This document shows positions 4,931-25,457 of a DNA stretch of 64,000 nt, in pieces; the stretch's first letter is position 1, and every line of letters starts with the position of its first letter. The position numbers were made by a program, and so were the translations under genes. The notes beneath the pieces were generated by a model that worked only from the letters and a program-made list of their open reading frames with translations, searched no databases and was not told where the DNA came from. Origin of the DNA: Erythrobasidium yunnanense. Its lineage: Eukaryota > Basidiomycota > Cystobasidiomycetes > Erythrobasidiales > Erythrobasidiaceae. The DNA lies in NCBI GenBank assembly GCA_001600175.1, contig BCJC01000007.1, positions 558,001 to 622,000 of the forward strand, given 5' to 3'.

Positions 4931-5677
4931 TCATGAAGGGCAGCTACTCGCAAAACTTGCATCACTGCCGCGTCTCTTACAGTCAACCCTGAACTCTCCT
5001 TTCTCATCCTTCGACACTGAGTCTCGGCTGTAGATTGAAATACTGGAGCCTCGTAAAGACCTGGGCCTATGAAGCGGTGGTGACCTACACTGCAGAGGTG
5101 CAGCAGCTTTCGCGGGTTGTCCTTTAGGCGTCTCAACAGATGCCAGTAAAGCTTTCGCTTCTTGCGCTCGTCTTCCCTTCAGCTCCCGGATCCTCATCTT
5201 CTGCTCCACGTCTGCCTGTTTCTTCGCAGCTGCAAGAGCAGCAGCCTCGTCCTTCCGTGTCTTCTCGCGAGATTGGATGCCGGCTTTTGACAGAGGTAGC
5301 AACATCCACTTTCCTGATCCCGTGCCGACGATTTCGAGTTCATCGATCTTTCCCGCAGCCTTGGTCCAGACGCACCATGGGGACACTACCTTTCTGCCCT
5401 TCAGCGTCCGCCTAGGCAGCACCGAATCAGTCCAGTCTTGACTATCGACTGGATGTCGATCGTAGTCGGTCCATGTATTCCTGTATAGGGCCCGCGTGAT
5501 GACTGTCTCATCCTCGAGTACGATGGCTAAATCTGCTTGCCAAGCGCATTGACTGATCAAGCGGAGGTTATGGGTAGCGGTCGAGTATCTCTTTGGTTGG
5601 GGAGCTGCTGTCCGGCTCAGTAACGATAGGCAACAAGCACAGGTGGGCCGTAGCTTACTGGCTGCTGCAGGGCTCAT
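4931..5677 (-). CDS. Unknown 'PWxxW' family, member A
   Basis: First of eight paralogues in this window. Exon 1 is 5677-5659 (19 bases, MSPAAA plus one base), then a 54-base intron, then exon 2 5604-4931; 230 residues. The N-terminal module begins PKRYSTATHNL, matching KRYT-A--TL of the other members. The core holds VDSQDWTDSVLPRR, VVSPWCVW and GSGKWMLLPLSKAGI. After it comes an Ala/Lys/Glu-rich, probably helical segment (RKDEAAALAAAKKQ, then RRAQEAKALLASVE), and a Ser/Arg-rich tail ending SDASFASSCPS. There is no signal peptide, no membrane segment and no conserved cysteine pattern, so a cytosolic or nuclear protein is likely. I do not recognise the family. It lies at the 3' end of an array of five genes in the same orientation, spaced by about 225-460 bases. 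Confidence 0.75.
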   Translation of the reverse strand: MSPAAASKLRPTCACCLSLLSRTAAPQPKRYSTATHNLRLISQCAWQADLAIVLEDETVITRALYRNTWTDYDRHPVDSQDWTDSVLPRRTLKGRKVVSPWCVWTKAAGKIDELEIVGTGSGKWMLLPLSKAGIQSREKTRKDEAAALAAAKKQADVEQKMRIRELKGRRAQEAKALLASVETPKGQPAKAAAPLQCRSPPLHRPRSLRGSSISIYSRDSVSKDEKGEFRVDCKRRGSDASFASSCPS

Positions 5678-5902
5678 CTCACTTTATACGTGACTAGAAG
5701 GGCGATTATACCTGTGTGATGATCGAGTGAATCTGGACAAAGCAGCCAAAGAGCATATCTTGCATCTCCGACTTCCACGAAGTGTACCTTTGTTATTAAA
5801 GGCCACAAGGGGAAGGTAAGTGTATGGTCAAAGGGACACGACTGCTAGAACAACCGAGAGCTGAGTATAAGAGCGTTGCAAAGATACTGCACCTCGCGCG
5901 CT

Positions 5903-6581
5903 CTACGATGCCATGCTCCCGCGTCTCGACGTAGATGTCACCTTCTTCTTCTCTGATAACTTGGTCGTTGCCATGCTCATCAAACCGTCCCTGCTTGAAG
6001 TGCAGGAGCCTCCTTTCTCGCTCGCTTGTGCTTTTGAATCACCGCCGAATACTTCCCGCCCAGCCGTGTTGCCTGCTAAAGTCAATGCGGCTTCCCTCTT
6101 CACGTTGCGCTCGACGATAGCCTCGCTCCTTAGGCGCTCATACTTGTCTTCAGTCCGTTGTTTCGATGCCTTGAGTTCACCTTTTGACAAAGGTACTAGT
6201 GTCCACGGACCTGATCCGTCCACTGCTGCCACGACTTTGAATCGGCTTACATCGTATTTTGCGTTCTTCCATACAGCCCAAGGTGACATAGAAAGTGGCT
6301 TACGGAGACGGCGTGGGGATAGGTGATTCTGCCATTCTGTGCTGTTCACGGGTTTGCCAAGGTAATCAAAGGTCGAGTATCGGTCTAGAAGGCGGCTGAT
6401 GGGAGCGCCGTTGCGGGGATGTATTGCGAGCTCTACGCAGAACCGATGGTAGCGGACGAATTGGAGGGTGCCGTCTGATGTCGTGTAGGATGTCTTGGCA
6501 GGAGCTACTCTGAAAGTCAGTATGGACGTGCAGTACCGGTAACGATGTGGTCTGCCACTTACGTATTACGCGGAAACTCAT
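5903..6581 (-). CDS. Unknown 'PWxxW' family, member B
   Basis: Exon 1 is 6581-6563 (19 bases) and exon 2 is 6507-5903; 207 residues. The acceptor must be the AG at 6509-6508: the AG two bases earlier in the transcript would bring in an immediate stop. The N-terminal module reads SYTTSDGTLQFVRY and the bridging segment RLLDRYSTFDYLGKPVNS. The core is divergent at its first tryptophan motif (TEWQNHLSPRR) but has MSPWAVW and GSGPWTLVPLSKGEL. The tail is shorter than in D and E and ends in Lys/Ser-rich sequence (LSEKKKVTSTSRRGSMAS). Function unknown. Upstream, at 6668-6676, lies the CATCCTTTC element found before several other members. Confidence 0.75.
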
Positions 6582-6865
6582 TTGAACCTGGGTGTCGGGA
6601 GCGGATGTCGAGGAGCTGAGCGAGCAGACAGCATCAGCTCAGAGGGGTTGGATACCCTTCATCGGAGCATCCTTTCAAGCCTTCGGGTCGAAAGGGTATC
6701 AGGAGGTCATTCGCCTAAAGGTGTGGTGAATGGGTAGAATGCGCTTGTTGTGTGGGCTTAGTAGCTAGAAGCCGTAAACGTTTTTCTAGCAAGACTGCGC
6801 TGCAATCGGCCAACGATGTCTGACGGGAGTCATAAGATATTAGTACAAACGGGCACGACAGCACG

Positions 6866-7606
6866 CTACTTGCCGGAAGTAGCGACACTGCTCTTTGTGA
6901 TCGAATATCTTACTTTCCCCTCTTGTCCGGTAGCCATGCTAATATTAGTAGACGACCTAGCTGTATCTACGCGAGCGACTATCGGTCGTCGAAGAAACCC
7001 ATTTGAGCGAAATGATGTGGAAGGTGCGTGTGGGGCTGGTTTCGAATTAGCTGACCTAGGCTGATTGTTCAGCGATACCAGTATGGCCTCAGCTTCCTGG
7101 CCCCGTTGATCGTTGAGTCGCTGATCCTGTCCAGCCTTGATGCTTCGGCCTGCCCTATTCTCACTTTTCCGCTTCGTTTCGAGAGCTCGATGCTCTTCTT
7201 TGGTAAGAGGGGCCAGCATCCACTTTCCAGATCCATCCGGCGCAGCTAGAATTGCTACTTCATCGAAATTGACCCAACACTTTCGCGTCCATACTGTCCA
7301 GGGAGAGACGAGGTATTGTCGGTGGAAGCTCCTTTTCGGGGTGAGGTAGTCAGTCCAGTTTTTGCTCTCTATCGGTCTATCATCGGTGGATCTGGTCTCG
7401 AATTGGGTCAAACCTCGAGTAATCGGGGTTCGGCCGTACGGCTTAATAGTGAAGCTGGTCTGATACCATGTCTGACGCCCTGCACCCTCGCAGAGGGTTC
7501 CTTTAGCGGACGTGTACCGTACCATCTGGGGATCTGCTTGCACGTCAAGCTTTTATGCACATATCAGCGTCGCGACAGGGTGCTCACAGTGACCGGCTAA
7601 GCTCAT
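6866..7606 (-). CDS. Unknown 'PWxxW' family, member C
   Basis: Exon 1 is 7606-7588 (19 bases, MSLAGH plus one base) and exon 2 is 7536-6866; 229 residues. The N-terminal module reads MVRYTSAKGTL, then FETRSTDDRPIESKNW. The core is well kept: NWTDYLTPKR, LVSPWTVWTRK and DGSGKWMLAPLTKEEH. A charged helix (ALETKRKSENRAGRS) and a Ser/Pro-rich tail follow, ending KSSVATSGK. Exon 1 length, intron phase and core order agree with members A, B, D, E and H. No known domain is recognised. Confidence 0.75.
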
Positions 7607-8044
7607 AGTGGTCTCAAGCCAAGTTACGTCGTGAGGCCGGTGGCAGGAAACAGAGAGACTTGCTGCATGTACTTCTATGAAGATGCACTCTTCTGGCGGA
7701 AAGGCCCCCTTGAACGACTCTCAGTGCCCTGCCGCCAACTTTCCGGTCAGAATCTGTGAATACCATTCATCGATACGACAGGGGTCTGGGAACTGGCTTG
7801 CATGGTTGCTGATATGGTATGTAGATCTCGTTATCGCGATGAGGGGCCGAAAGGGAGCGGAGCTCAATTGTCGAGTAGCCTACCAAGGCTTATTTGCCAT
7901 GATAGTTGCAATGCATCACTCTTGGAGTAGGTACTGAGCTTGGGCGAGCTTCTTCAGCTGGTCGCGGATGTTGAACAAGCCGAAGCCAAGTGTGCGGACA
8001 CGCAGTGCGTTCTCATCTGTCAGAATGCAATCATACTACACGTT
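7607..8044. other. Intergenic region between family members C and D
   Basis: No gene is supported. This is the promoter side of member C and the 3' side of member D. I see a GGAAAGG stretch near 7700 but no clear copy of the CATCCTTTC element found before members B, D, E, F, G and H. Confidence 0.4.
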
Positions 8045-8848
8045 CTACGGCACACTGGCTTCAGAACTTGCGCGACTGCTGCATCGCACCAGCGGATCTT
8101 TAGCCTTTTCGATACTAGATCTGCGATTGCCATTCGATAAGCTTGTGCGAGACGATCGATTGGCCAGTCTCGAAGGCGAGCTGTTGGCAGATGAAGAGGG
8201 GATTCGAGAGGAGCTTGCTGACATGGAGGCTCTAGATCTGACATGTGGTTGTGGGGTTACGATAGGCACCTTTGTAGGTACTGTAGCAATATTCAGAGCT
8301 GCCATTTGTGCTTTGGCTTCTTCTGCTCTTTTCTTTTTCGTGAGGGCATGCTCGCTTCTGATTTGGGCCTTCATTTGGTCTTGCGCTCTGTTCTCGGCAT
8401 CTTTCTTGTCCTTCCTCGTTTTCTTCAAGGCATCCAACTCAGATTTAGGCAGAGGCGCCAACGTCCATTTGCCTGTACCATCTGCAGCAGCTATGATCTG
8501 TACTGAATCAATGTCTTGCCCACTGTGCTGCCAAAGCGTCCAAGGGGGAATAACCTTATGTCTGCCCCAACGTCTGACTGGCGAATCAGTCCATACCGTA
8601 CTATCGATTGGATCCCCGTGATAACTAATGGTTTCGTATTGTCTTAGTTGCCGTTTGACAGAGGTGCCCAGGTCAAGCGTTATTTCGAAGTTGATGTTGC
8701 TAGAGCTGTACCAACGATCATCCCAAGCTCTGAGGGTGCCACTAGCGGTGGTGTATCGTTTCATATGAACTTCTGCAGAGTGGATTTAGAAACTGCAGCC
8801 TGTCAACATGCGGTTGCAACCATACTCACCGGGTGCGCTGGACGTCAT
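8045..8848 (-). CDS. Unknown 'PWxxW' family, member D
   Basis: Exon 1 is 8848-8830 (19 bases, MTSSAP plus one base) and exon 2 is 8772-8045; 248 residues, the same length as member E. The N-terminal module reads MKRYTTASGTLRAW. Then come FEITLDLGTSVKRQLRQYE and the core IDSTVWTDSPVRR, VIPPWTLW and DGTGKWTLAPLPKSELD. A long Lys/Ala/Glu helix follows (RKDKKDAENRAQDQMKAQ, then KKKRAEEAKAQMAALN), then a Ser-rich tail containing SSIEKAKDPLVRCS. That tail motif is shared almost word for word with member E, so D and E are the closest pair and probably the latest duplication in this array. Function unknown. Confidence 0.8.
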
Positions 8849-9307
8849 CTTCGCAATATCTTTACTCTTGAATCAAATGAAGGTGAAAGAGGTGGACCCG
8901 TAGGCAGAGCGGACAGCTTCATAGCTGGCCTCGACTCCATCCTTTCTGCTCAACTGCCTTTTGTAGCAGAACGGCCCGATTCCTTGCCAGGGTATGGGAG
9001 AACTAGCTGTGGACCCTTTCACTAGAATGCTCCTTAGACTGCAAGCCTTCCGAGGAGGCCCTAGACAGGGCGACCGGAGGGACCAATCGGCAGCGTGCAG
9101 CTTTGCTGCATACAGCAGTGAATGAGGAGAGCGACAAGGAGCTCTAGCAAGATGAGTGTGCTCGCCGGTCTAAAGCCGAACTGCGCTACGAACCACTGTC
9201 AAGCTAAGCCCGGGCTTCATCGCATGTGAGTCTGCATTTTAATAAGCTCAGGCCAAGTCTACTGCAAGGGAGCGTACCCTTAGCTTCGATATGCGATCGA
9301 CAGGGCT
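8849..9307. other. Intergenic region between family members D and E
   Basis: No gene is supported. It holds a CCATCCTTTC element at 8937-8946, about 90 bases before the ATG of member D (on the coding strand it reads GAAAGGATGG). Otherwise I see nothing. Confidence 0.4.
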
Positions 9308-10110
9308 CTATCGGACGCTTGATGACGAGCTCCCGTGAGTGCTACAGCGTACCAGGGGTTCTTTAGCCTTCTCGATACTAGATCTGTGATTGCCGTTGGA
9401 AAAGCTTGTGCGAGGTGAACGACTGGCCAGTACTGCAGGGGAGGCATTCGTAGCTGCTGCAGAGACCTGAGAGACAGTGCTTAACGCAGAGGCTCTACTT
9501 CGAGCTTGTGGGCGCGCGGTCACTTTAGGCGGCTTCGAAGGTTGCGAAGCGTTATTGATAGCTGCCATCAGTGCCTTCGCTTCCTGTGCTCGCTTTTCTT
9601 TCTGAAGGCGTGTTTGCGCACGAAGCTCTGCTTTCTGTTCCTTGCGCTCCCGTCGATCCGCAGCTTTTTCATCTTTACGATTCTTATCCAGAGTTTGCAG
9701 GTCCTCCTTTGGAAGAAGCGCCAGCGTCCACTTACCATCTTCACTCGGGGCGGTGGTGATGATCTGAACCTTGCATACATCCTTGCCGGCCATCTTCCAT
9801 ATGGTCCACGGGGATACGGCCTTGGGCTTGGCCCACCTGGAGATCACCGAATCATTCCATCTCTCACTATCCACAAACTCTCCTGTCCATTCATCCCTGG
9901 TTTCGTACTTGCTCAGCCGCCGTTGTATCGCCGCCTTTTGAGGATCAGGAGTTATCGCGAAGTATATCGTGTCCCAATCCTTGCCGTACGTTTCGAGGGT
10001 CTTAGCAGCCGCTGTGTATCGCTTCCACCCGATTGCTATTGCATGCAGTCAGCATTCGTAGCCATACGAAATGCAGCCGGACAGTACTCACCAGGGGTAG
10101 AAGTAGTCAT
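9308..10110 (-). CDS. Unknown 'PWxxW' family, member E
   Basis: Exon 1 is 10110-10092 (19 bases, MTTSTP plus one base) and exon 2 is 10035-9308; 248 residues. The N-terminal module reads WKRYTAAAKTLETYGKDW, followed by YFAITPDPQKAAIQRRLSKY. The core is DSERWNDSVISRW, AVSPWTIWKMAGKDV and EDGKWTLALLPKEDLQ. A long basic helix comes next (RRERKEQKAELRAQTRLQKE), then the Ser-rich tail with SSIEKAKEPLVRCS shared with D. It is the most upstream gene of the first array. The CCATCCTTTC element lies at 10195-10204. No family recognised. Confidence 0.8.
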
Positions 10111-10384
10111 GTCTGGCAATACTTGAGACTTTGATGATTCAGACAGAAGCCAAAGAGTCGAGCCGTGGGCCAAGCAGGCATTTTGTAGGTGGGTCCATCC
10201 TTTCAGAGGGCTCCTACCATTGAACGGCTGCTGGTGGAAAGGGTATCGACAAGGGCACTTCCCCTTGGCTAGTCTTCCTTACTCACAGACTTACAAGGGT
10301 GATTGAAGGGGTTACTAAAAGGTGGCATCGTCTCCAAGCATCAGTACAAGCTACATGAAGCCAGTGAGCACTGTTTGACTTGCC

Positions 10385-10620
10385 TGCGGTCCCTCGATGT
10401 AACCTCTAGCTTCAGCAGCCTTCCGTTCAGTAAAGCCGTGCTTATACTGCTTTGATCCCTGCTGGAAATTGGTGCTAAGTGTGCAGTCAAACCCAGTCAG
10501 AACTCACGTCGCCCACATTTCTGGTAGTGCTGATATACGTACGATACTGCAGACGGGCTGCTCCGCGCTGCCTGCAGACTGGTTGATCTGGGGGTCGGCT
10601 TTCTCAGCGATAAGCATGAT
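10385..10620 (-). pseudogene. Decayed tandem copy of the CsbD-like gene
   Basis: Read on the minus strand, this stretch is clearly related to the intact gene at 11017-11528. It has an exon-1-like part (PQINQSAGSAEQPV against AQINQTVGSAKQLV) and an exon-2-like part (QQGSKQYKHGFTERKAAEAR against QQGSEQYNQGVAEQRAAEAK). The first exon lacks the original start context, the donor that should follow the second exon reads GC instead of GT, and I find no counterpart of exons 3 and 4. It is best read as a broken duplicate. The remaining DNA from 10111 to 10384 and from 10621 to 11016 holds no gene I can support. Confidence 0.65.
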
Positions 10621-11016
10621 GGCAGACATGGACCGGCAGGCGTTTTTTGTGCATGCGTACGGATGTGATAGAAGGCAGCCTTTCGAGACGCTGTTTAACA
10701 GACTCGGATTAACCACAACGATATGGCATATGCCTACCTGCGCGGCTGGAAAGCTCCTCATCTTGCCGAACTTACAGGTAGCTGGTCCATCCAGCTGTAG
10801 CCTGTAAGCTGTTAGCAGTTTAGCTTGACTACGGCAGTTGAAACGCTATTGAGGTATCATGAGCGATCAGTGCGGGGAATGTTCACGAGCTTTCTACGCG
10901 ACTGCGATGGTGTGTGGAAAACTCGAGGGTACAGAGAGAACCCGTTGGAGGAACAGACAGATAGAGAATAGATAGCTTAGAGAATGCGAAAGCGTGACAT
11001 GAAAGGTCTCCTATGC

Positions 11017-11528
11017 CTAGCTGCTGGGCTTGTTGAGATCCTGCTTCAAGACACCCTTGTCATGCTGTAGCTGAGCGGAGTTCTGCTTCTGAACATCACC
11101 AGTGACGGCACCGATGACCTGTCAAATTACGCATTAAAACCAGTCCTTAGGTACAGAGGCGAGTCGTCGAAGTGTAGTCTCACGTTGTCAACCTTACCCT
11201 GAACTCGGTCTGCCGACGGTACATCAGCTTAAGCTGGAGACAAGCGAACAGTAGTGCTTGACGCACCTGCAGTTCCCTCGACGTAGCCTTTGGCTTCAGC
11301 AGCCCTCTGCTCAGCTACACCCTGGTTGTACTGCTCAGAGCCTTGCTGCTGGAGGGTCGTTCCGAGTGTCGAGTCGACCTGCAAGATCGACCAGCCAGTC
11401 AGCACTGACGACGCTCGCTTTTCAGGTGTAGATATACGCACAACGCTGCCGACGAGCTGCTTTGCGCTGCCTACAGTCTGGTTGATCTGGGCATTGACTT
11501 TGGACGGTTCGCCGGACTCGGTAGACAT
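11017..11528 (-). CDS. CsbD-like / general stress protein
   Basis: Four exons (11528-11442, 11378-11267, 11209-11184, 11118-11017) give a 108-residue, hydrophilic, Gln/Gly/Ala-rich protein. It has repeating amphipathic units of the CsbD type: QINQTVGSAKQLVGSVVDST, EAKGYVEGTADRVQGKVDNV and IGAVTGDVQKQNSAQ. The pattern G-x-A/D-x-x-x-G-x-V/A is the hallmark of CsbD-like and LEA-like proteins, which in fungi are small cytosolic proteins induced by stress or stationary phase. All splice phases agree, including the 26-base third exon. The C-terminus ends KQDLNKPSS. A degenerate copy lies directly downstream at 10385-10620. The molecular role is not established for the family. Confidence 0.75.
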
Positions 11529-12091
11529 GGTTGCTTGGAGGGTTTAATAGGTTCGAGATAAATACGCAGAGAACTTGAAAGTAGTGCTTCAGAAGTCGTT
11601 CAGAAGTCAACAGTCGAGTCGCTTTGGTCTCTCCGGGACAGGCTAACGCCTTTGCGTCAGCGAGATGTCATCTGTATGGCGAGCTCGAATGGAGCCGGAT
11701 GAGCGGGCTATGCGTGAGCGTCAAGGCATCTTCTGAAAATCTGTAGATTGGCTTGTGTTGTAGGCGTAGTGAAGTCTTCTTGGTGCTGAAGTGTGGGACG
11801 GAGCAAAGTCGAGACAAGGAGAAAGAAACAAGTTTGATGCTTCGAGGTACTGTAAGCGATCCAGGTATCATTTCATCAATGTATCCGCTGATGGCGCTCG
11901 TTGCGAAGAAGAGCGCAAAACGAGCGGATAAGGAGCTACAATCTCGAAGATACCGACGAAAATGCAGACATAACCATGGCTTCGAACGAAAGCGTGATGT
12001 ATCCTTGCCATTGTAATGACGAGGGATACAGTGACAGGACCGACAAGGGAAACGTTGCTACGCGGAGAGCAGTCAGATTGTGACTGGCGAC
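11529..12091. other. Intergenic: promoter side of the CsbD-like gene and 3' side of eIF1
   Basis: No gene is supported on either strand. The open frames here are short and without recognisable content. Confidence 0.4.
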
Positions 12092-13035
12092 TTAGAAACC
12101 GTGAATCTTGATAGTCTCGCGGGCTACATAGACAGCGACAGCATCAGTATTGCAGTCAAGACATGAATGAAGTCACAAAAACTACTCACGCAATCCGACG
12201 TCCTCGGTAAGCATCTGAGAGATCTTTGATCTCTGATCACCTTGTAGCTGAATGACCTGACCCAGTTCCTCATCTTCAACGAGTGTTCCATTGCATGCAA
12301 ATTCCTTCTTAAAGTGTTTGAGCAGCTTCTTTGGGTCGTACTCGTTGGGAACACCTTGGACGGTCGTCAAGGTCTTGCGGCCATTGCGCTGCTGAATGCG
12401 GATGTGCACGTATTCAGGAGCTTTGGTGCTCTTGTCAAGCTGAGTCTGCGTCTCTAGCTCATCGAGTTCGGCAAAGGGGTCTACACCGTAGCGCATGTCG
12501 ATATTAGCGGAAGGCGATTTGTAGGTTGAGAAAGCGCGAACGCACCGAAACCAGCTAGATTCTGGACTTTCGAGGCCTTGGTCTCGGATGTCGACTTTGA
12601 GGAAGACTCTTTGGTCTTTGAAGAGGATGACTTCTTCTTCTTCTTTTCTACCTCGCCTGCAGCCGCGTCCGGCAGCGGAGTGTTTGAGCCTGCCATATAC
12701 CACAGTGCATCAACAATGTGTTCTTGCCAATGTTGCTGAGGCGTGGCACAAGCCAGCCAGCCAGTCCGCGACAATGAACCCAAGGCTTACGCGACTCATT
12801 GTCAGATGTTCCGGCGGCGGTAGCGTCAGTGATGTTGAGCTTGCCAGCGAGTGAGTCGAGTTGGTCTATCAAACCATGAATCAGATACGGAGTTCTTTGG
12901 TAGATTGGGTTGCGAGGCAGGCCCACCAGCGCCCAAAGGAGTCCCTTGGACAGCTGCTTTTGCAGCGTCAGACGGATTGCTGTTCTCTAATGATGCGCTA
13001 GCAGCATGCGTTGTGGTGGTGTCGGTCGAGCTCAT
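12092..13035 (-). CDS. SUI1: Translation initiation factor eIF1 (SUI1) with a long N-terminal extension
   Basis: eIF1 binds the 40S subunit near the P site and guards start-codon selection. Exons 13035-12927, 12865-12791, 12689-12546, 12480-12190 and 12123-12092 give 216 residues. The C-terminal half is unmistakable eIF1: VQNLAGFDPFAELDELE, YVHIRIQQRNGRKTLTTVQG, FKKEFACNGTLVEDEELGQV, IQLQGDQRSKISQMLTEDVG and the end IKIHGF. Usual eIF1 is about 110 residues; here about 102 residues precede VQNL. They include a Thr/Ser-rich start (MSSTDTTTTHAASAS), DQLDSLAGKLNITDAT and a Lys/Ser block (EKKKKKSSSSKTKESSSK). The extension depends on two introns (12926-12866 and 12790-12690), both in correct phase. 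An ATG at 12696 lies inside the second intron and could give a shorter form if that intron is retained at its 3' end. Confidence 0.85.
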
Positions 13036-13311
13036 AAAAGCGTAGAAAGGGACTGGCAGGCAGGTTTATTCGAGGGTTTGGTAAGGTCTGCCGACAATCA
13101 AGGACAAGTAAAAGCATATGGGTCAATGTAACACTTCTTGAATCTCCAGTTGTTCGCTGCCCACCTCGTAAGAAGGTCTGCTGCTTTGAAGGTGCTGAAG
13201 TCGGAGCTGGTTCAAAGGCTAACCCTCGAAAGAGTCTTGAAACACTTTCAACACTTTGTGGCAAGGGAGTCTTGAATTGCCTGTAAGGCTCTCTTCAACT
13301 CACTTGAAAGC

Positions 13312-14173
13312 ATGTTTGGAAACTATCTAGGTAAGTAGATCTACTATGTGTATGCTACAAGGTCTAAAGCTGATTCAAGACTGTCGCCAGGCGTCAAGAA
13401 GCCAGAAGACACGGGCAGGCGAGCCAGAGGACAAGGCCCACCAGCGAGATACACAAGAGCACCGACATCAGCACCCCAAGATGCTTCCAGCGTGAGATGC
13501 CAGAAATGCTTGAAGTGAGTGCAACAAACGCCAGCTTTCCTCGTGGGTTTGGGAGCTGATTTTAAGCCGGCGTCAGATTGGGACATTACACATACGACTG
13601 CAAGAACAGCCAGGTGTACAAGGTGGGCTAATAGCAGCTATCTAGATGCGAGAGTGCAGCTTACATATTGTTTTACAGGCCCGACCCAGCCGGACACAGC
13701 AGCTTCTGAATCCCAAGAAAGCAAAAGATGGACCCAGCGTAGCTGTTCCCGCAGAATTTGGCGGCTCAGGACAGCCTGTAACAAGCAGTGCACCTCTAGC
13801 TATCACAGCTGGGCTGGCAGACAAGATCCTGGCAGACAAGCAGAAGAACAGGAAACGAAAGTCGAAGCGGTCTGGAAGCAGCTCATCCAGTAGTAGCAGC
13901 AGCAGCGACAGTGACAGCGACAGCGACTCGTCATCCTCGTCATCCTCTTCCTCTTCGTCAGACTCGGATTCAGACTCACACTCGTCCTCTTCGTCTGGTA
14001 GCGGGTCATTAAGGTCTAGCCGGAGCAAGAAGCGCAAGAGCAAGAAGAGAAAGGTGTCTCGTTCGCGGTCACCCGTGCGAATACGGCGTAGAAGTAATTC
14101 AGCTGGGTCGAGAAGCCGTAATCGCTCCAGGTCGCCTGCAGATACAGGCAAAGGGAAGGGCAGAGGCGACTAA
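13312..14173 (+). CDS. Zinc-knuckle protein with Ser/Arg-rich tail (ZCCHC10-like)
   Basis: Exons 13312-13330, 13391-13514, 13577-13622 and 13679-14173, 227 residues. A CX2CX4HX4C zinc knuckle, CQKCLKLGHYTYDC (residues about 44-57), spans the exon 2/3 junction and is followed by RPSRTQQLLNPKK. This is the arrangement of animal ZCCHC10 and fungal zinc-knuckle proteins. The C-terminal half is low complexity: a Lys/Arg block (KNRKRKSKRSG), a long Ser/Asp run, and RS dipeptides (VSRSRSPVRIRRR) typical of nuclear RNA-processing proteins. The N-terminus MFGNYLGVKKPEDTG is split by a phase-1 intron after 19 bases. The family's biochemical role is poorly known; nuclear RNA binding is an inference. Confidence 0.8.
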
Positions 14174-14265
14174 GCTTTGTGAAGTACAATATCTTGTTGT
14201 GTGTATCTCTATATTGCTATGTAGACAAGCTTTGGTTCAGATCAACTGCCTACCCCTATTCCCTA

Positions 14266-16731: not shown

Positions 16732-16753
16732 TTTGATTGACAACACGGACAAT

Positions 16754-19681
16754 CTATACTCCCTCAGCATGGGACTGCCTATCCGCGACACTTCCTCGCT
16801 GACTACCTCTATGATGCGAATGCTGCTGCTGGATCCGAATCTCTTTGAGTGGACTCTTCTCTTTGTCTTCGACTGAACCCCAAGCACCTCCGCCAGGCGT
16901 CTTCATCAAGAAGCGATCTCCCTTGCCCATTTTGATCTGGACAGATGAGACTCAACGCCGATGATGGTGATACTCGATGAAAACGAAGGCTTACTGTAGT
17001 CTTGCCTCCCAAATTTATGGCTCGGTATTGTTTGGCATCAGCGCCCTCCGCTAGATCGCCATCTTCCTTCCTCGGCAACTTCATCCATAAATTCTGTCCA
17101 CACTCCGCATCACCGCCTCCAGCCAGTCCGAACGGCCTAAATACTCTTCTTTCCGAGAGCATAGAAGCCTGAATAGGTTCTGTGAACTCGACATCGCGAA
17201 TGACGCCGTTCCCTCCATTATGCATGCCCTTTCCACCAGATCCTTCGCGAACGCTGAACTCGCGCAGAATGACGGGATAGCGACGTTCGAAGATCTCGGG
17301 ATCGGATATACGAGTATTCGTCATATGTACATGGACACCAGACGTTCCTACCCATGTAGACCCGGCTCCCTGTAAAGACATGTCAAGAACAGCATCGCCA
17401 ATTATGTGTCAGTACATACCGAACCCCCGCAAACAGTCTCGTAGTAGCCCCTTCAGAAGATCAATCAGCGAATGCCCTCCGGTCCCGTCGATCTAGAGCT
17501 ACGTACCAGCCCTCCGTATGATTGCCCTGTTCATCTTGGCCGCCTTGTCCGAAGGTGAAGTTGTTGCCTGTGGTGCTCTATCAGTCTCCAACTACAGAGA
17601 TACGGGAAGCCAGGCTCAAGAGGTGCCCACAATCCCCTTGACTGGCCGCAGCCGCGTTGAAAGCTTTCAAGACCACATCCGTGATACGTTGCGAAGTGCA
17701 CACGTTTCCGCCTACAGACAGCATTTGTTACTGAGTGTCTTGTCATATTTCACCATGAATCGGCGACTTACCGACTACAGCTGCTGTCTCGCTTGGCGCT
17801 AGCAAACTACCGGGCGGCAGCTTTACCTCGATAGGTATGAGACAGCCATGATTTAAAGGTATCTGTCATCGGTCCCAGATCAGTCTTGAGCTTGCTCTGT
17901 TATGATTCGGAGACTGCAACCCACATCGAGATCTATCATTGCTCGGAGGCAGTATACTATCGCGCTGTAAGAGACGGAGGTCGGGCAATTGAGGTTACCT
18001 GCTAATAAATGAGCTCTTATCACTGCTCGCGTCTCTTATTTCACTCACCGATCATCTCCGTACCAGTGCCTTCGAAGTCGAAGATCGCAGAGCCTTCTTT
18101 CTCGTTGATTTCGATATGTAGCTCGATAGGACTTCCGTCGTCCAGATAGTCTTTGGCATATAGTTTCGTTCCGCGTGCTTTGGCTACTTGCTTAAGGAGG
18201 TTCCGGACTGCTAGCTCTGCATTATCTCGAATCTGAGGAAGCAGGATCAGTATGATCGGACTACTCGATGGCAGTCGATGACTGACATGCAACATGTATT
18301 CTTGCACCGTCTCTAAGCCGTACTCCTCAATCATCAAATAGATCAGGGAAGTGCCCCTGCCAGGATCAACGTTCAGCCTCGATCTCGCTGTACTACGAGG
18401 GATAGCGTACTTCTGATTCGCAGCAATCTGAGCTTGTAAGTCACTCTCTACATCTCGTAAACAGCGGGTGCCCGAACATCCAGGGTATCTGGAAAAGCGT
18501 TAGTCCCCGTAGGCTGTCGCGAATCAAAGAGGACACAGTACTTGACGCACTTCGCTGGATCTTCACAAAGAAGTTTCAGAAGACCGTCTCTGTCGTAGTC
18601 GCCTTTCTTCACGATCTTGAAAGACTTGATCTGAGCGCCTTCTTCCTGAAAGCGCATTCCAGTCAGCGAATGTTACGGAAGCTATGATGAGACTCGTACA
18701 AAGATAGTCTTGCTCGTTGGCGGCATCGATCCCGGCAATATACCACCGATATCTGATAAGCCCGACAGATGAGCTGCGCCATGTAGTTTGAAGAGGAGAC
18801 GAGCAGTACCTGCATGATGCCCGCGAGACGCTGTGAAGAAGACAATCTCGCCATCCTGGAATACAGGTGTGATGACAGTCATGTCTGGCAGATGCGACCC
18901 TCCAGCGACAGGGTGATTTGCTGAGCGGACGATTGGGGGACCAATTAGCTGCCTGTTTGAGAGGGATATATAATCTCCCTACTGAGTAAGACGTCCCCTT
19001 CCTGCAGATCGCCCTCTGTTCATCCGGAAAGTCAGCATCGCTTCCAGGACAGTTGCAAAGCAATCGCACTGAGATGGTTGGTCTGCCATCGAACGGCACT
19101 ATAGATAAGGTTAGTGGGCACAATAGTTAAGATTACGTAGGCAGCGCTTACAAGGACATGCTGCCCTGGAACACAGAGAGATCTTGTCAGCAGAACATAG
19201 CATCGCCCAGTGCCATTACGATGTACCAGATGCACAGGCAGATGCGGCGCATCTAGGTAGAGTACTTAGCTTAATATCCTTTCCCAAGCGTGTTAGTCTA
19301 CATACTTGCGATCAGGTCTCCGTTTGGCGCGAAGATGGCACAGCTGAAGTCGAGGCGTTCTGTAGATAAATAAAAGGTGAAGAGATGTGGGTGTCAATTA
19401 AGCTGGGCAGGAAGACCAGGCTAGATCCGTACCCTTGATGTTGGTCCTGAATACCAATCTGGCTCAACGATAATTCAGAAGATAGACGATTCGCAATAAG
19501 ATCTCACGATATGGAAGTCTTCTGCAAGCTGCGACCCATCGCCTGGAACAGGATGACCTTAGAAGCGTGATCCGGCATGACTTGTCTGTGAACCACGCAC
19601 TTCGGCGACCGCCATGAAACGGTGAGCGAAGAGGGACAGCAGGATCCGGTCAGGCTTCTTGTCTTTGTTAGTCTCGGGCAT
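16754..19681 (-). CDS. Stand-alone hydantoinase B / 5-oxoprolinase HyuB-domain protein
   Basis: About 21 small exons spliced in consistent phase give roughly 590 residues that span the HyuB domain from end to end. Landmarks in order: [20 protein letters not shown] (first two exons, 19681-19601 and 19542-19508), [145 protein letters not shown] and the end [10 protein letters not shown] plus a polar tail. HyuB acts with HyuA in ATP-dependent opening of hydantoins or 5-oxoproline (glutathione cycle). In most eukaryotes the two are fused in one chain of about 1300 residues. Here an ATG at 19681 starts HyuB directly and no HyuA lies upstream, because a divergent gene begins at 20037. HyuA may be encoded elsewhere, or this is a HyuB-only enzyme. 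Confidence 0.85.
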
Positions 19682-20036
19682 GGTCAGTAGGATATGTCAG
19701 TTTGTCGCGAAAGCAAGGCAGGCCATAGCCATTTACGCGAGAACACATTATGCTTTTCGGGAAGAAGGGTAGATGTAATGAGAGCATATCTACTTGATAC
19801 TTCGATACAACTACCACTCTCAACTCCGCCTTGCTCCTTCGAGTTGTTTCTGCATGATCTCATCCTGACCCTGTTGCGCCGGCTGACAACCGAACGGACA
19901 GCGCAAAGCCTTTGCATTGATCCTTGGCTTATTACAGGTTGGCTCTGCTCCAATTCGCGCGAAACATCTTCAAGCTGCTGCTTTTGCTTGCAGAGTTCTC
20001 AGGTGTTTGAAGTCTTGAATTTGTCAGCGAGACAGG
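19682..20036. other. Divergent promoter region between HyuB and the DUF2985-like gene
   Basis: These 355 bases separate two ATGs pointing outward, so both promoters must lie here. It contains pyrimidine-rich tracts near 19960-20010 but no motif I can name. Confidence 0.4.
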
Positions 20037-22531
20037 ATGCCTCTCCTCAAGACCGACATCTTCAGGCGCGCGCAGCCAGCGCCAGCGCAAGAAGAAATGG
20101 CTGCAAACGAGCAAGTCACACCTAACACTATGACCACAACCCATGTACCTCCTCCTGCGACTTCTACGAACCAAAACAATGATGGCGGACACCTGCTAGC
20201 TCCGCCTACTCGGTCCTATGGTAGACCTGCAATGTCAGGCAGAACAGGCTCGGTCATGATACAGAGGATGTCCAGCTACGAAGGCCCTGACAGTTCTACC
20301 AGGCGCAGCAATCCATCCGCAAGTTCTGAAAATACTGCTGGCTCGCCGCCCGCCGAATCTCGAAAGCGCGCAGTCACAATTGCCATACCTCAGCGCATTC
20401 GTAGGACATTCACTCCGCAGCTCGGGAACAATAATGAAGAAGACGCAGTGGAGCTACAGCGCCCCCAGGTAGAAGAGAATGGTCAGACCGCTAGCGAGCG
20501 ATTCGAGGAGCACGAACAGGAAGAGTTGGAACGCGAGGATTCATCTAGGACAACAGGATGGGCACAAGCTTTAGGTCTCAGTAGGGTTGGCAGGAGTCGT
20601 GCTGGAACCGCTGCGACCAGAGCTACAAGTGGCCCCGCTGCCATCACTGGCGGCAGAAAACGAGCTGGCACTTCTGCGAGCCGGCTAAGCCATAACAGCG
20701 TAGACTACTCTGAGCAAGGCAGGGATCAAGCCTACGATACACGAGTCCACGATCTTCTAGACGCCATCGACCCTGAAGTTCAAATGCTCAACACGTTGGG
20801 AGATATCCAGAACTCCCTCTTCATCCCTTACACCGGTCTCTTTGATCGTACGCGTAAAGTCAACCTTACCAAACCGCCGAATGAGAATATCCTCTCGCCT
20901 TCACAACAGGCCGCGCAGGATCGTGCGGATATAGATGCCGAGCATGCAGCAGAGGTTCAGCGGGAAGAGGAGGATCCAGAAGCACGGCAGAGTAAGATCA
21001 AGAAGCTGTTATCCAGAGAAGAGAAAGGGAAAAGCGAGGTAGACGCAGAGAAGGACCTGCCTGCGCCTCCTACAGTAGCCAACGAGGACGGAACAGTCGA
21101 GTTGCATGGTCCCGATGAACCAGTCGACACAGAAACAACGCTTGTTGCTACTGAAGTAGTAGTCAAAGGAAAGTACTTCGTGCTACCCTCGAAATTGGTC
21201 GATATGTCGGACTGGACAGAGCAGGAGAAAGCAGAGTTGGATGACTATGTCCGACATCTCTTGCATAACAGGAAAGAGCGGCTGCGGCGGAAATGGAGAG
21301 GGTTCAAGAAATACGTATCGACGCGTGAGTTGCTGTTTTGAGTTCTGAGAATTCGACTCATGAAGCTAATGTGTGTGAATCAGCCCTCGGTGCCTTCGTC
21401 ACTATCTACGCTACCCTTCTTGGCCTATGGGGAACTGCGTGGTTCTTGTTCTTGCTAGGCTGGATCCCAGTCGGCGATCGACAAGCGTACTTCGTCGAGA
21501 TCTGCGACCAGATCTTGGTTGCTCTATTCTGTTTGACCGGACGTAAGTAGTCTCACTTGTTTGTCAGGCTGTGCGCGCTGCAACGTCAAGCTAATCTCGC
21601 TCTCGCTTGTTGCAGTCGGTCTCATACCCTTTCGATCCAGAGATACATATCATGCCTACTTTATCATCAAATACCACAACAAAACGCTCAGACTCCGCAA
21701 GAAGCGCGGTTTACCCAAGCTGGCAGATAGGAACGATCTGCCGAACGACCAGATGTACAATCGGGATCTTGAAGCAGCAGGTCATGCGCAAGATGCTGTT
21801 TTGAGCGATGAGGAGCAAGCATTGCTTGCGAAACACCAGACCGCCTTCCAGAAATCACATAGTGCGTGATCCTGGATTCTGTTTTCAGCAGCAGTGCAGT
21901 GATCTGTGTAGGGCTTTACTGACTGTCTTTTCGCGCGGACACAGCTTATTATCGACCTCACGAAACACCGACTCACCATGCCTTCCCTCTTCGCTATCTT
22001 ATCGCAATTATCATCCTTTCAGACTTCCATTCCGTCTTCCAACTCGCTTTAGGCACTACAACGTGGTCCATCTCCTACCACCGGCATTTCAAGTCAATCT
22101 TAACATCTGTAATTCTCGGTTTCTCCCTGTCATGTAACATCACGTCTGGCGTACTCATTGCGGCTGGTAACAAAGTATCACGCAAAACGGAAGTGGTAGA
22201 TGCCCTACTGAGAAAAGCCATCACGGAGGAAGCTATCAGACGAAGAGAAGACGCGATAGCGTACAGGGAGGAGAAGAGGCTGGAGAGGGAGAAAGCGCTA
22301 CAAAGAAGCAGAAGACAGAGCTCGGATGGAGGTGCGCTTACGAAAGCGACAGATGGGGCATTCTCCGTCGAGAAGATCATGAACATGCATGGTGCCTCGA
22401 AAGACAACGAGAACTCAGGGAAGCGAGCGAGTACACCTCCTATGCGACACTCGTCGGATAGCAAGCGGAAACTCGTTGGCAGTCGACAGTCTACGATAGA
22501 TACCTCTTCTTCCTCAACATTACAGAATTAA
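20037..22531 (+). CDS. Multi-pass membrane protein, DUF2985-like
   Basis: Exons 20037-21324, 21384-21542, 21616-21861 and 21945-22531, 759 residues. The first 400 residues are polar and disordered (Ser/Thr/Pro and Glu rich). The membrane part follows: FVTIYATLLGLWGTAWFLFL, then LGWIPVGDRQ, ILVALFCLTGLGLIPF, and after a short cytosolic loop (YHAYFIIKYHNKTLRLRKKR) two further segments, YLIAIIILSDFHSVFQLALG and SILTSVILGFSLSCNITSGV. The tail is a charged helix with RRREDAIAYREEKRLEREKA and a Ser-rich end. The order of W-G, LGWI and P-R-D/D-T motifs fits the fungal DUF2985 family, whose function is unknown; some members carry a PLAC8-like region, which I do not see here. Confidence 0.75.
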
Positions 22532-22793
22532 CGCAAGTCGTGTCGTTCCTTCCCGCATCTGCAGTCTGATTTCACTGCCTTTAATTGTAGCCTATCTCGT
22601 TCGATCAAGTTGTGTAGACAATAGCTGTCTCCTGTGTGTGGCTTAGAACAGCGCTTGGTGCATCAGCGATGCAAGGCAGCATATATCACGGAAAGCTTCA
22701 TAAGCTACGACACCACTGCTCTCCCCCTAAGAGGATTATAGCAGATATTCAGCCAGGCACGATGTAAAGGCTGGCTACGGAAAGTATCGACAA

Positions 22794-23285
22794 CTATCCC
22801 CTGATAGCCGAGTGTGGGGTTTCCCGTCTGATCATGTCGAGGTGTCCTCGTTCTTGAATTCGACGGCTTCTGCTTTGCTGTCTTTTAGACTTCAATCTGT
22901 CGTTCTGTTCCGCCATGCGTGTGGTCAGTACAGGTTGAAGCTCATCCCTCGGTAGGAATGCTAGCGTCCAGAGGTCCTTTCCGTTCGGCGAAGTGATCAC
23001 GCGTAGACGCGCCGGATCGTACTCAGCCCTCTCCCATATCGTCCAAGGATTGACCTTGCAATGAAGATCTCGCTTAGAGCCAGAAGAGTTGGTCCAGATG
23101 TCGTTCTGGCTCTGTCCATCGTACCATTTCCGCTTATTCAGCGGACGCATGATCTTCTCCCCGTTGTCCAGCGTGATCCGGATCACCAAACCACTAATGC
23201 CGTAGCGCTCGTCTTTACGATGTATAGCGAGATTTCCGGCTTGAGTGGTGAAACTCTGATATTGATCATGTGCAGTTCGGTCCAT
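22794..23285 (-). CDS. Unknown 'PWxxW' family, member F (intronless)
   Basis: Single exon, 163 residues. It starts MDRTAHDQYQSFTTQAGNL, matching the spliced N-terminus of the other members (KRYT-A-GTL), but without the 19-base first exon and intron. It continues with VIRITLDNGEKIMRPLNKRK and the core NDIWTNSSGSKRDL, KVNPWTIWERAEYDPARL and NGKDLWTLAFLPRDELQ. The C-terminal part is short and basic (DRLKSKRQQSRSRRIQERG). It is closest to member G (shared RITLDNG/CITLDNG, RPLNK, SxSKRDL and LAFLPxDEL). Upstream, at 23450-23458, lies CCATCCTTT. Function unknown. Confidence 0.75.
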   Translation of the reverse strand: MDRTAHDQYQSFTTQAGNLAIHRKDERYGISGLVIRITLDNGEKIMRPLNKRKWYDGQSQNDIWTNSSGSKRDLHCKVNPWTIWERAEYDPARLRVITSPNGKDLWTLAFLPRDELQPVLTTRMAEQNDRLKSKRQQSRSRRIQERGHLDMIRRETPHSAIRG

Positions 23286-23835
23286 CGTGTCTTGTAATAA
23301 AGCTCCTGATAGCTTGCTTTCTGATGTTTGCGGATCCTGCTGCCAGAGCAGGATGACCAGAATAGGCTGGATTGATGGGCAGAGCTCTTTGTGTCGAGAG
23401 CGGATTCAAGAGTGAAGGAGCAGCCCTGAGAGCGGTTGATATGAGGGTGCCATCCTTTGGGGGTGGTCAACCTTTGAGAGACTGGAAGGGTAGCGGTAGT
23501 CAGACTAGAAGGGATGCCTCACTCGCTAGCTGTTGTCGCTGCAGCTTGTCCAGGCAGGACCATGCATCAAGCTTGACTACTTCATTGTCGTTGAGACCGA
23601 AGCGGTCACATCAGCCATGGGAAGCCTGTCTATTGGAATTTCTGGTACGGTATGGTAAGTTCAGAATGTCAAGCATAGGCGGACAAGAGACAGGTGCACT
23701 GTGGTATATAGCACTCCGGATGTCATTTGTGCGGCTAGCATACGAAACTGCTTGCTACCAGGTGTGCCGATGTTGTCCGTTGTCCGGCAGTAACAAGCCT
23801 CAGAGCTTGGCCTTCTCCTTCGCAGGGGTAGTGCC
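23286..23835. other. Intergenic region between family members F and G
   Basis: No gene is supported. It is the promoter side of member F, with CCATCCTTT at 23450-23458 and a related GTCAACCTTTGAG at about 23466. The part nearest member F (about 23335-23460) resembles the DNA upstream of G and H (shared CCAGAGCAG and GAGTGAAG stretches). Confidence 0.45.
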
Positions 23836-24387
23836 TTAGGAACGCTTGCTGGACAAGCTTGTTCTACCAGACGAGCCTGCGACTACAGACCTTGGCTGAC
23901 TTTGCTGTGCTGCCCGATTGTCCTTCTTTCGATGACGCAGTTCCTGAGCAAGACACACCATGAAGCGGTCCGGATTGTCGTGGTAAGATGCACCGTCAAT
24001 CCTCCTCTGGTCTTTTCGCTTCTGCAGTACTATCTTGAGCTCATCTTCAGGGAGGAACGCGAGCTGCCAGGGGCCCTTGCCGTTCGGCTGAGCGCGCACG
24101 CGAAGACGCAGAGCATCGTAGCTAGCTCGCTTCCAAATCGTCCAGGGATCGACTCCATGCGGATGGAGGAGGTCTCGCTTGGACGATGGTGACTTAGCCC
24201 AATATGTGTCTTTACAGACATCGGAGGTAGCTTGGACCTTGTTCAGCGGCCGCTGGAGCTGGTTGCCATTGTCCAGGGTTATACAGACAAAGAGTATGTC
24301 AGGGGTGCCATAAGCAGGCCAACATTCGTTAGCAGCTATGATTCTTAGGTTCTTGGCAGAGTAGGTGAAACTCTGCATCTCGCTCAT
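23836..24387 (-). CDS. Unknown 'PWxxW' family, member G (intronless)
   Basis: Single exon, 183 residues, starting MSEMQSFTYSAKNLRI. The core has DTYWAKSPSSKRDLLHPHG, VDPWTIWKRASYDALRLRV and NGKGPWQLAFLPEDELK. The first tryptophan motif is altered (WAKS instead of WTDS). A basic helix and a Ser-rich tail follow (GRTSLSSKRS). It shares with F the fused N-terminus without intron, so F and G form a sub-branch that either lost the intron or arose through a spliced copy. The DNA upstream of the start (24445-24640) is duplicated upstream of member H. Confidence 0.75.
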   Translation of the reverse strand: MSEMQSFTYSAKNLRIIAANECWPAYGTPDILFVCITLDNGNQLQRPLNKVQATSDVCKDTYWAKSPSSKRDLLHPHGVDPWTIWKRASYDALRLRVRAQPNGKGPWQLAFLPEDELKIVLQKRKDQRRIDGASYHDNPDRFMVCLAQELRHRKKDNRAAQQSQPRSVVAGSSGRTSLSSKRS

Positions 24388-24896
24388 TATGGCTAGCTGA
24401 AGTACTTGATCGGGATGTAGCTGATGTTATCTTTTGGTTCTTGAAGTCTGCTTCCAGAGCAGTGATTCCGGAGTACGGGTCCATGAAATTGCTGTGTAGA
24501 GCAGAGTGAAGCTTGTTCGTATGAAGCGGACCCAAAAGCGAGCGAGCAGTTGTGCGAGCTCGGCGTTGAGCGGGTTCCATCCTTTGACTAGCAGCTCCTT
24601 TGGTCAACCTTTCAGGGGCATGTCGTGCAGATTCCGGTCAGCTAAGTGTCTGGAGGTTTGCCGTCTACTGAGTCGAAGGGAAAGACTTGTTGCATTAAGC
24701 GATACACAGAAGAGCGATTGTCTCGCAGTCAGAAGAATTCAGACGCTAGGTTGGCACGAGACTCAGCATACAATCGAGGCTCTTAAAGAGAGAAGAAAGA
24801 ACCAGAGCGAGCCTAAGACTTGACAACCAGTACCAAGTCAGACAAAGATCCAGATCAAGTAGTACGAGCTGCCTCACGAGAAGAATAGATACAGGA
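24388..24896. other. Intergenic region between family members G and H
   Basis: Promoter side of member G, with CCATCCTTTG at 24577-24586 followed by GGTCAACCTTTCAG. No gene is supported. Part of it (24445-24640) is one copy of a duplicated block. Confidence 0.5.
24445..24640. repeat. Duplicated upstream block, copy 1 (before member G)
   Basis: This stretch matches 25563-25765 at several points in the same order: CCAGAGCAGT, then GTGAAGCTTGTTCGTATGAA against GTGAGGCTTGGTCGTGTGAA, then AAGCGAGCGAG against AAGCAAGCGAGG, then ATGTCGTGCAGATTCCGGTC against ATGTCGTGTCGATTCCGATC. The duplication therefore carried the promoter as well as the gene. Confidence 0.6.
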
Positions 24897-25457
24897 CTAC
24901 TTGCCAGCAGTGGCTGCATTCGCCTTTCGGTGGTGGATGTGGCGGAACCGAGTCTTAGGAGGTTCAATCTTGCGTGGACCGCGGAAAATACCAGTATTAG
25001 GTGGTGTCTCCGGCTTTGTGGGAGGCTTTCCTCCGTGCTGCTCCTGATATTTACAAGTCAGCTCGAAACGCTCCTTCTTTGTGAGCGGCAGAAGGGCCCA
25101 GTTCCCGCTCCCGTCTGCTCGCGCCCACACTTGAAAGTTGCTGATGTCCGGACATCGCGTCCATAATTTCCAAGGCTGTATAAATCGCTCTTGTTGTTGA
25201 AAGGCCCGCTTTGGCAACATAGACTTTGTCCATAAGTCGCTGCCGCCATCAGGTCTGAACCCCTCGAGATATCTGTAAAGTCTCTTCCAGTTAGGGAGCT
25301 TGATGGACACCTTGATGTAGTCTCTTCCGACTTCATCTAGAGACAGAGTGCCTTCGATAACCGTATACTTTCGCATGGGAACATCTGTTGTACAAAGTGT
25401 GAGTAATCTCGGATAGGTGTATTGTCATATATACTGACCGGTCCCGGCTGTAGCCAT
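24897..25457 (-). CDS. Unknown 'PWxxW' family, member H
   Basis: Exon 1 is 25457-25439 (19 bases, MATAGT plus one base) and exon 2 is 25384-24897; 168 residues, the shortest member with an intron. The N-terminal module reads MRKYTVIEGTLSLDEVG, then VSIKLPNWKRLYRYLEGF. The core is SDLWTKSMLPKRAF, FIQPWKLWTRCPDI and DGSGNWALLPLTKKER. The long helical tail of A-E is replaced by a short Pro/Lys/Arg-rich end (KPPTKPETPPNTG, then RFRHIHHRKANAATAGK). Exon 1 length and phase are identical to A-E although the protein is quite divergent, which argues for common descent. Function unknown. Confidence 0.75.

What the first reader, a model, noticed from the sequence alone, without database searches (positions are those of the whole stretch)
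4931..25457. Eight-member, apparently undescribed protein family in two minus-strand arrays
Eight genes (4931-5677, 5903-6581, 6866-7606, 8045-8848, 9308-10110, 22794-23285, 23836-24387, 24897-25457) encode proteins of 163-248 residues with one core: W(T/N)xS, a K/R-R pair, PWxxW, then (G)xWxLxxLxK/E. The core is preceded by a K-R-Y-T-like module and followed by a basic helical, Ser-rich tail. I cannot match it to any family I know. The arrays are separated by about 13 kb of unrelated housekeeping genes, yet all eight lie on the same strand. This pattern (many diverged paralogues, fast-changing tails, invariant tryptophans) is typical of lineage-specific families under diversifying pressure, such as allorecognition, stress or host-interaction genes.
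Basis: partly seen in the sequence, partly recalled or inferred. Interest (0 to 1): 0.85.

Follow-up and report, generated by a model that had tools for sequence, protein, structure and literature searches.

The report
Large unknown fungal protein gene family
A small genome that looks fungal carries at least 22 related genes or gene remnants for an unrecognised kind of strongly basic protein, scattered in clusters and single copies; the genes look real and old, but what the proteins do is not known.

Summary
Six of the eight share a phase-1 intron after a first exon of exactly 19 bases.

None of the 18 members scanned passes a Pfam cut-off. NCBIfam (8 scanned), PDB sequences, two Foldseek PDB searches and one viral-structure search gave nothing convincing. 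AlphaFold2 gives g4 a fairly confident Trp-rich beta domain of about 105 residues running into a long charged helix; a second model (g3) is poorer in the middle.

All 22 have pI 9.4 to 10.4. A crude scan shows no signal-peptide-like stretch in the eight window proteins. RTS occurs in 8 and RR[GS]S in 6 of 22 tails.

Nine paralogue pairs show average purifying constraint at near-saturated synonymous change, so diversifying pressure is not supported.

Most likely: an old, duplicated family of basic intracellular proteins with a binding domain, a charged helical arm and a kinase-controlled tail. That function is inference. Fungal proteomes could not be searched, so lineage restriction is untested.

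The parts
4931..5677 (-). g1: exon 1 5677-5659 (19 nt), intron 5658-5605 (54 nt, in frame), exon 2 5604-4931; 230 aa
5903..6581 (-). g2: exon 1 6581-6563 (19 nt), intron 6562-6508, exon 2 6507-5903; 207 aa
6866..7606 (-). g3: exon 1 7606-7588 (19 nt), intron 7587-7534 (an acceptor 3 nt away would also keep the frame, by my reading), exon 2 7533-6866; 228 aa
8045..8848 (-). g4: exon 1 8848-8830 (19 nt), intron 8829-8773, exon 2 8772-8045; 248 aa; the first 165 residues from the ATG at 8764 were modelled by AlphaFold2
9308..10110 (-). g5: exon 1 10110-10092 (19 nt), intron 10091-10036, exon 2 10035-9308; 248 aa; 50% identical to g4 over the matched part
22794..23285 (-). g6: single exon, 163 aa; groups with g7 (support 94/81)
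23836..24387 (-). g7: single exon, 183 aa
24897..25457 (-). g8: exon 1 25457-25439 (19 nt), intron 25438-25385, exon 2 25384-24897; 168 aa
6668..6675 (-). AAAGGATG box, 94 bases upstream of the g2 ATG
8938..8945 (-). AAAGGATG box, 97 bases upstream of the g4 ATG
10196..10203 (-). AAAGGATG box, 93 bases upstream of the g5 ATG
23451..23475 (-). AAAGGTTG and AAAGGATG boxes, 190 and 173 bases upstream of the g6 ATG
24578..24612 (-). AAAGGTTG and AAAGGATG boxes, 225 and 198 bases upstream of the g7 ATG

Best explanation
The genes belong to one old, duplicated family of strongly basic proteins that most likely stay inside the cell. Shown here: common ancestry, modular layout, a 19-nt first exon in six of eight window genes, average constraint on the reading frames, basic charge, and copies in same-strand arrays at several loci. 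Inferred: a Trp-rich beta domain of about 105 residues is a binding module for an as yet unknown partner; the Lys/Arg/Glu-rich helix behind it is a basic arm that touches an acidic surface (nucleic acid or membrane) or pairs with another copy; the tail with RTS and RR[GS]S sites is a switch set by a basophilic kinase such as PKA. Copies would then differ in partner or condition rather than in mechanism.
For: Homology among 22 members: single-protein searches and core-only profile comparison (window vs C1/C2: probability 94.2%, E 1.1e-7, 93 columns; window vs C5: 95.8%, E 6.9e-9, 46 columns). First exon of exactly 19 nt with a phase-1 intron in 6 of 8 window genes and, by my reading of the sequence printed, in c4a and c9a. 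AlphaFold2 on g4: mean pLDDT 86.1, eight strands of 3 or more residues, a short helix over PWTLWQH, then a helix from 107 to 160. pI 9.4-10.4 in 22 of 22. Highest 15-residue mean Kyte-Doolittle value in the eight window proteins 1.35. RTS in 8 of 22 tails (shuffled mean 1.9) and RR[GS]S in 6 of 22 (shuffled mean 0.7). dN/dS about 0.25 for g4/g5.
Against: No partner, location, expression or phosphorylation was measured. The tail motifs were chosen after looking, most members lack each of them, the looser [RK][RK].S is only 15 against 9.3 in shuffles, and the shuffles do not control for relatedness (g4/g5 and the C1 genes share tails by descent). The g4 model has weaker blocks (mean pLDDT 74 for residues 11-20, 68 for 61-70, 56 at the end), and the g3 core model is poorer: mean 71.4, under 50 in four segments, without the two middle strands and the helix over PWxxW. 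A long helix from a charged sequence may be a bias of the predictor. C1/C2 to C5 is weak on its own (39.6%). Tail serine is 6%, 11% and 1% in g6, g7 and g8.
Confidence: 0.35

Rival explanations
1. The proteins are host- or neighbour-interaction effectors that leave the cell by an unconventional route.
For: Arrays of diverged paralogues without known domains are common among effectors (general knowledge). Several copies look truncated or degraded: c4c lacks the first half of the core, c9a and c1e stop before a stretch that still matches, and C9:491k is a fragment, which fits birth and death.
Against: No signal-peptide-like stretch in the eight window proteins by a crude scan (the other 14 members not scanned); old divergence under average constraint. 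The loci lie about 290 kb or more from the contig ends (places and contig lengths).
Confidence: 0.15
2. The family works mainly as nucleic-acid or chromatin binders, for instance in regulation or in genome defence.
For: pI 9.4-10.4 in 22 of 22, and a basic run behind the core in 16 of 22 by a loose pattern.
Against: Such runs are expected in proteins this basic. No known nucleic-acid-binding domain passes a cut-off (18 of 22 scanned) and no fold has a significant Foldseek score.
Confidence: 0.2
3. PWxxW is a clathrin W-box and the proteins are endocytic adaptors.
For: PWxxW is the published W-box consensus and the bound peptide is compact and helical (passages of PMC5182127 and PMC5694535). 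PWxxW is present in 8 of 8 window genes, c4a, c4b, c4c, c9a and the C9 fragment, and forms a short helix in the g4 model. In the g3 model the same stretch is unstructured, with pLDDT around 48.
Against: In the g4 model the motif lies inside a domain (block mean pLDDT 89), not in the disordered kind of stretch usual for adaptors. It is not kept in the C5 genes (PW with the second Trp two residues later) or in the C1/C2 genes (PG in place of PW). A classical clathrin box was not looked for.
Confidence: 0.08
4. Allorecognition genes.
For: Only the general pattern: many diverged copies in arrays.
Against: No HET, NACHT or other allorecognition domain by Pfam in the 18 of 22 members scanned; average purifying constraint; no population data.
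Confidence: 0.05
5. The core is a far-diverged member of a known fold that sequence and structure searches missed (weak best hits: cyanovirin-N-type lectins). This can be true together with the main reading.
For: The top Foldseek hit for the g4 model is microvirin, and many cyanovirin-N homologues follow in the first 50.
Against: E 0.11, probability 0.38, TM-scores 0.21/0.30, rmsd 14 A; no hit reaches E 0.001. With the second model CVNH chains appear only at E 4.4. No Pfam CVNH match in the members scanned.
Confidence: 0.25

Closest known systems
Cyanovirin-N homology (CVNH) lectins
   Same: small beta-rich domain; weak Foldseek top hits for the g4 model
   Different: no sequence match; TM-scores of about 0.2-0.3; a long basic helix and tail that CVNH chains lack (recalled)
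Clathrin W-box ligands (amphiphysin PWDLW)
   Same: PWxxW, in a short helix in the g4 model
   Different: in the g4 model the motif is part of a folded domain; it is changed in the C1/C2 and C5 subfamilies
Lineage-specific tandem gene families of fungi (general kind, recalled)
   Same: arrays of diverged paralogues on one strand, some decayed copies
   Different: no signal-peptide-like stretch in the window proteins, strongly basic throughout, old and on average constrained; lineage restriction itself untested

Membership tests
CVNH lectins | match to the Pfam CVNH model | tested here: not met
   no CVNH match at E <= 1 in 13 family proteins (8, 5), nor at E <= 10 in the 7 cores; together 18 of 22 members
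CVNH lectins | CVNH fold over the whole domain | tested here: not met
   best Foldseek E 0.11, TM 0.21/0.30, rmsd 14 A; second model E 4.4; both on predicted models
Clathrin W-box adaptors | PWxxW sequence | tested here: inconclusive
   present in the window, C4 and C9 members, changed in the C1, C2 and C5 members
Clathrin W-box adaptors | motif in a disordered, exposed stretch | tested here: inconclusive
   inside the domain in the g4 model (block mean pLDDT 89); low-confidence and without structure in the g3 model; exposure not computed
Clathrin W-box adaptors | binds the clathrin terminal domain | not testable with these tools
   needs a pull-down
Conventionally secreted effectors | N-terminal signal peptide | tested here: not met
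   hydropathy scan only, eight window members, no dedicated predictor: highest N-terminal 15-residue mean 1.35
Fungal allorecognition genes (HET, NLR) | HET or NACHT domain | tested here: not met
   no such Pfam match in 18 of 22 members scanned
Genes under diversifying selection | dN/dS above 1 | tested here: not met
   9 of 9 chosen pairs have pN below pS; 5 with finite dS give 0.18-0.32; site-level tests not done
Lineage-specific family | found only in close relatives | not testable with these tools
   no fungal proteomes here; one query (g4) found no relative in IMG/VR or GTDB contigs, which are not expected to hold fungal genes

The most novel reading that the evidence does not exclude
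The core is a new eukaryotic domain with a fold not in the PDB: a Trp-rich beta domain that hands over directly to a rigid charged helix, deployed at least 22 times in one 21-Mb genome as a set of kinase-controlled basic adaptors with separate partners.
Probability: 0.2. Interest if true: 0.6.

Novelty: new variant of a known kind. Interest (0 to 1): 0.42.

Why it matters
At least 22 gene copies or remnants in a compact genome are a large investment in proteins that no curated library used here names. If the domain is new, it adds a protein family and possibly a fold; if it proves to be a far branch of a known one, the same data would give that family a large, constrained set of divergent sequences. 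The gene models (19-nt first exon, in-frame intron in g1) also show how automatic annotation could misread such genes.

Tried and rejected
CVNH lectins: weak Foldseek hits only, rejected as a membership. Clathrin W-box: kept as a minor rival. On re-checking, the g3 model does not reproduce the structured PWxxW helix, so I raised this rival from 0.06 to 0.08 and marked the disorder test inconclusive. Prokaryotic or viral relatives: one query (g4) against IMG/VR (no pattern match) and GTDB contigs (29 pattern matches, none a relative); this says little about fungi. The promoter box as a family mark: rejected. AAAGGATG is the top 8-mer upstream of the family (6 of 21 upstream stretches against 6 of 722 background stretches, P 2.6e-8 before correction for 65,536 words; the background includes coding DNA and other words, such as CTGCTCT in 9 of 21, also score), but AAAGGATGG occurs 264 times in the genome against 149 for the reversed control. 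It is at most a shared general element or a trace of promoter duplication. Relationship of arrays: 2 of 18 inner branches are strongly supported (C1/C2 against the rest, and C5); C1 comes out as one group at 92/96; the five-gene window array does not (4 changes, 157 of 500 shuffles as low). Weak extra places in the genome (C1:2502444 and C1:3855821 at E 0.23-0.29; C9:787144 at E 2.6) were not followed up. Paper searches for PWxxW-type words and for such families (and 73 for an upstream element; listings only, apart from passages of two papers) found no description of this family; that covers only this open-access library and those words.
Full report
WHAT WAS CHECKED. Splicing shows a first exon of exactly 19 bases, then a 54-57-base phase-1 intron, in g1-g5 and g8; g6 and g7 are read as intronless. 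The intron of g1 is a multiple of three, so the unspliced frame looks open. By hand I read the same 19-base exon and phase in c4a and c9a (sequence printed). In g6 the 19th base falls where the intron sits in its relatives, which suggests clean intron loss; g6 and g7 group together (94/81). The first exon keeps its length while its residues vary.

RELATEDNESS. The eight cores share 11 invariant columns and 43% mean column identity. With g4 as query the seven other window genes match at E 5.5e-61 to 1.8e-6. The genome holds more: 14 further members and one fragment on C1, C2, C4, C5 and C9. Two more queries, g7 and c9a, added none; the tool calls its counts lower bounds. Members are g1-g8; c4a, c4b, c4c; c9a; c5a-c; c1a, c1b, c1d, c1e; c2a-c. 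Not all look whole: c4c lacks the first half of the core and c5c has only 37 residues behind it; c9a and c1e end at a TAG with matching sequence behind it; my c1b model lacks the start of the core and has an in-frame TAA upstream, so an intron or decay is possible there. Core-only profiles join the window group to C1/C2 (94.2%, E 1.1e-7, 93 columns) and to C5 (95.8%, E 6.9e-9, 46 columns); C1/C2 to C5 directly is weak (39.6%) (E-values are for single comparisons).

LAYOUT. AlphaFold2 on 165 residues of g4 with the eight window sequences gave mean pLDDT 86.1 and pTM 0.66: strands at 2-4, 11-14, 23-29, 35-41, 61-65, 68-72, 88-92 and 100-104, short helices at 42-45 and 74-80 (the latter over PWTLWQH), and one helix 107-160; ten-residue blocks 11-20 and 61-70 average 74 and 68. 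The g3 core alone gave 71.4: the first four and last two strands return, the middle (about 41-80) is low in confidence and lacks the two middle strands and the PWxxW helix. A pattern made after looking at the alignment finds a block like QEAKALLA behind the helix in g1, g3, g4, g5, c4a, c1a, c1b and c1d; it also hits elsewhere in c5b and c2b and misses the other 12 members. Serine in the last 80 residues of the window members is 18, 15, 16, 29, 25, 6, 11 and 1% for g1-g8. RTS occurs in 8 of 22 last-80-residue tails (shuffled mean 1.9), RR[GS]S in 6 of 22 (0.7), R[RK].S 13 times against 5.3, while the looser [RK][RK].S is only 15 against 9.3. These motifs were picked after looking and related tails count more than once. 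All 22 members are basic, pI 9.4-10.4, computed mostly without the first exon.

WHAT IT IS NOT. Pfam: 18 of 22 members scanned, 13 whole and 7 C1/C2 cores (two members in both); not scanned: c4c, c5b, c5c, c9a. Best E 0.0034 (ATP-synt_B on the helix of c2a, below its cut-off), nothing else under 0.05. NCBIfam, eight window members: nothing below 0.05. PDB sequences: best E 0.062 and 1.5. Foldseek: no match with E <= 0.001 in PDB for either model, or in BFVD for the first. IMG/VR and GTDB contigs with g4: no relative.

EVOLUTION. Nei-Gojobori counts for nine pairs that I chose: pN below pS in all nine; dS is finite over the whole length in five, between 1.7 and 2.8, and saturated in four; dN/dS where finite 0.18-0.32. 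The copies look old and on average constrained. Tail pN is higher than core pN in 7 of 9 pairs and lower in g4/g5 and c2a/c2b. Seven locus labels need 8 changes on the tree (least possible 6; shuffled mean 14.0, as low in 0 of 200), so copies cluster by locus overall, as tandem duplication predicts. But this rests mainly on C1 and C5; the five-gene window array is not one group, and only 2 of 18 inner branches are strongly supported.

UPSTREAM. AAAGGATG is the top 8-mer upstream of the family: 6 of 21 stretches of 350 bases (g2, g4, g5, g6, g7, c4a; c4c left out) against 6 of 722 background stretches. It lies 85-97 bases before the ATG in four of them. Genome-wide AAAGGATGG is 264 against 149 for the reversed control, so it is not a family mark.

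HOW IT PROBABLY WORKS. The anatomy suggests a binding domain, a basic helical arm and a kinase-controlled tail inside the cell. Only the anatomy (partly by prediction), basic charge, average constraint and copy number are shown. Partner, location and regulation are inferred; I give this reading 0.35.

SURROUNDINGS. Of eight other window frames scanned, seven match ordinary Pfam families: SUI1, hydantoinase B, acyl-CoA thioesterase, GATA, histone deacetylase, AIP3/Bud6 and a putative peptidase; one (865-1461) matched none at E 0.001. ORFs listed next to the other arrays show no gene type common to all by eye, without a Pfam scan except for one.

VERDICT. Observation confirmed and enlarged; 'unknown family' supported within the libraries available; 'diversifying pressure' not supported; function open.

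Noticed in passing
L011 (G000:C4:2001500-2007000), around G000:C4:2004220-2004380: Palindromic GCGGCGAATCGCCGC-type elements lie beside and at the 5' part of the truncated member c4c; the exact 18-base form searched occurs only twice in the genome, both here.
   Followed up: partly
L009 4912-5733 and 6639-7409 (+): Two similar open frames of about 260-270 residues lie between c9a and the C9 fragment; the first was scanned and matches no Pfam family at E 0.001. They look to me like RNase H-type proteins (recalled, untested).
   Followed up: partly
L009 2251-3038 (G000:C9:485k) and L012 1097-1972 (G000:C1:885k): Members c9a and c1e end at an in-frame TAG with family-like sequence following in the same frame: truncated or decaying copies, or unrecognised introns.
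   Followed up: partly
L013 1747-2241 (+): A long simple repeat that reads Ser-Leu, partly masked as N, sits between two C5 members.
   Followed up: no
window, 19-nt first exons of g1-g5 and g8: First exons keep exactly 19 bases while their residues vary; why the length is kept is unexplained.
   Followed up: no
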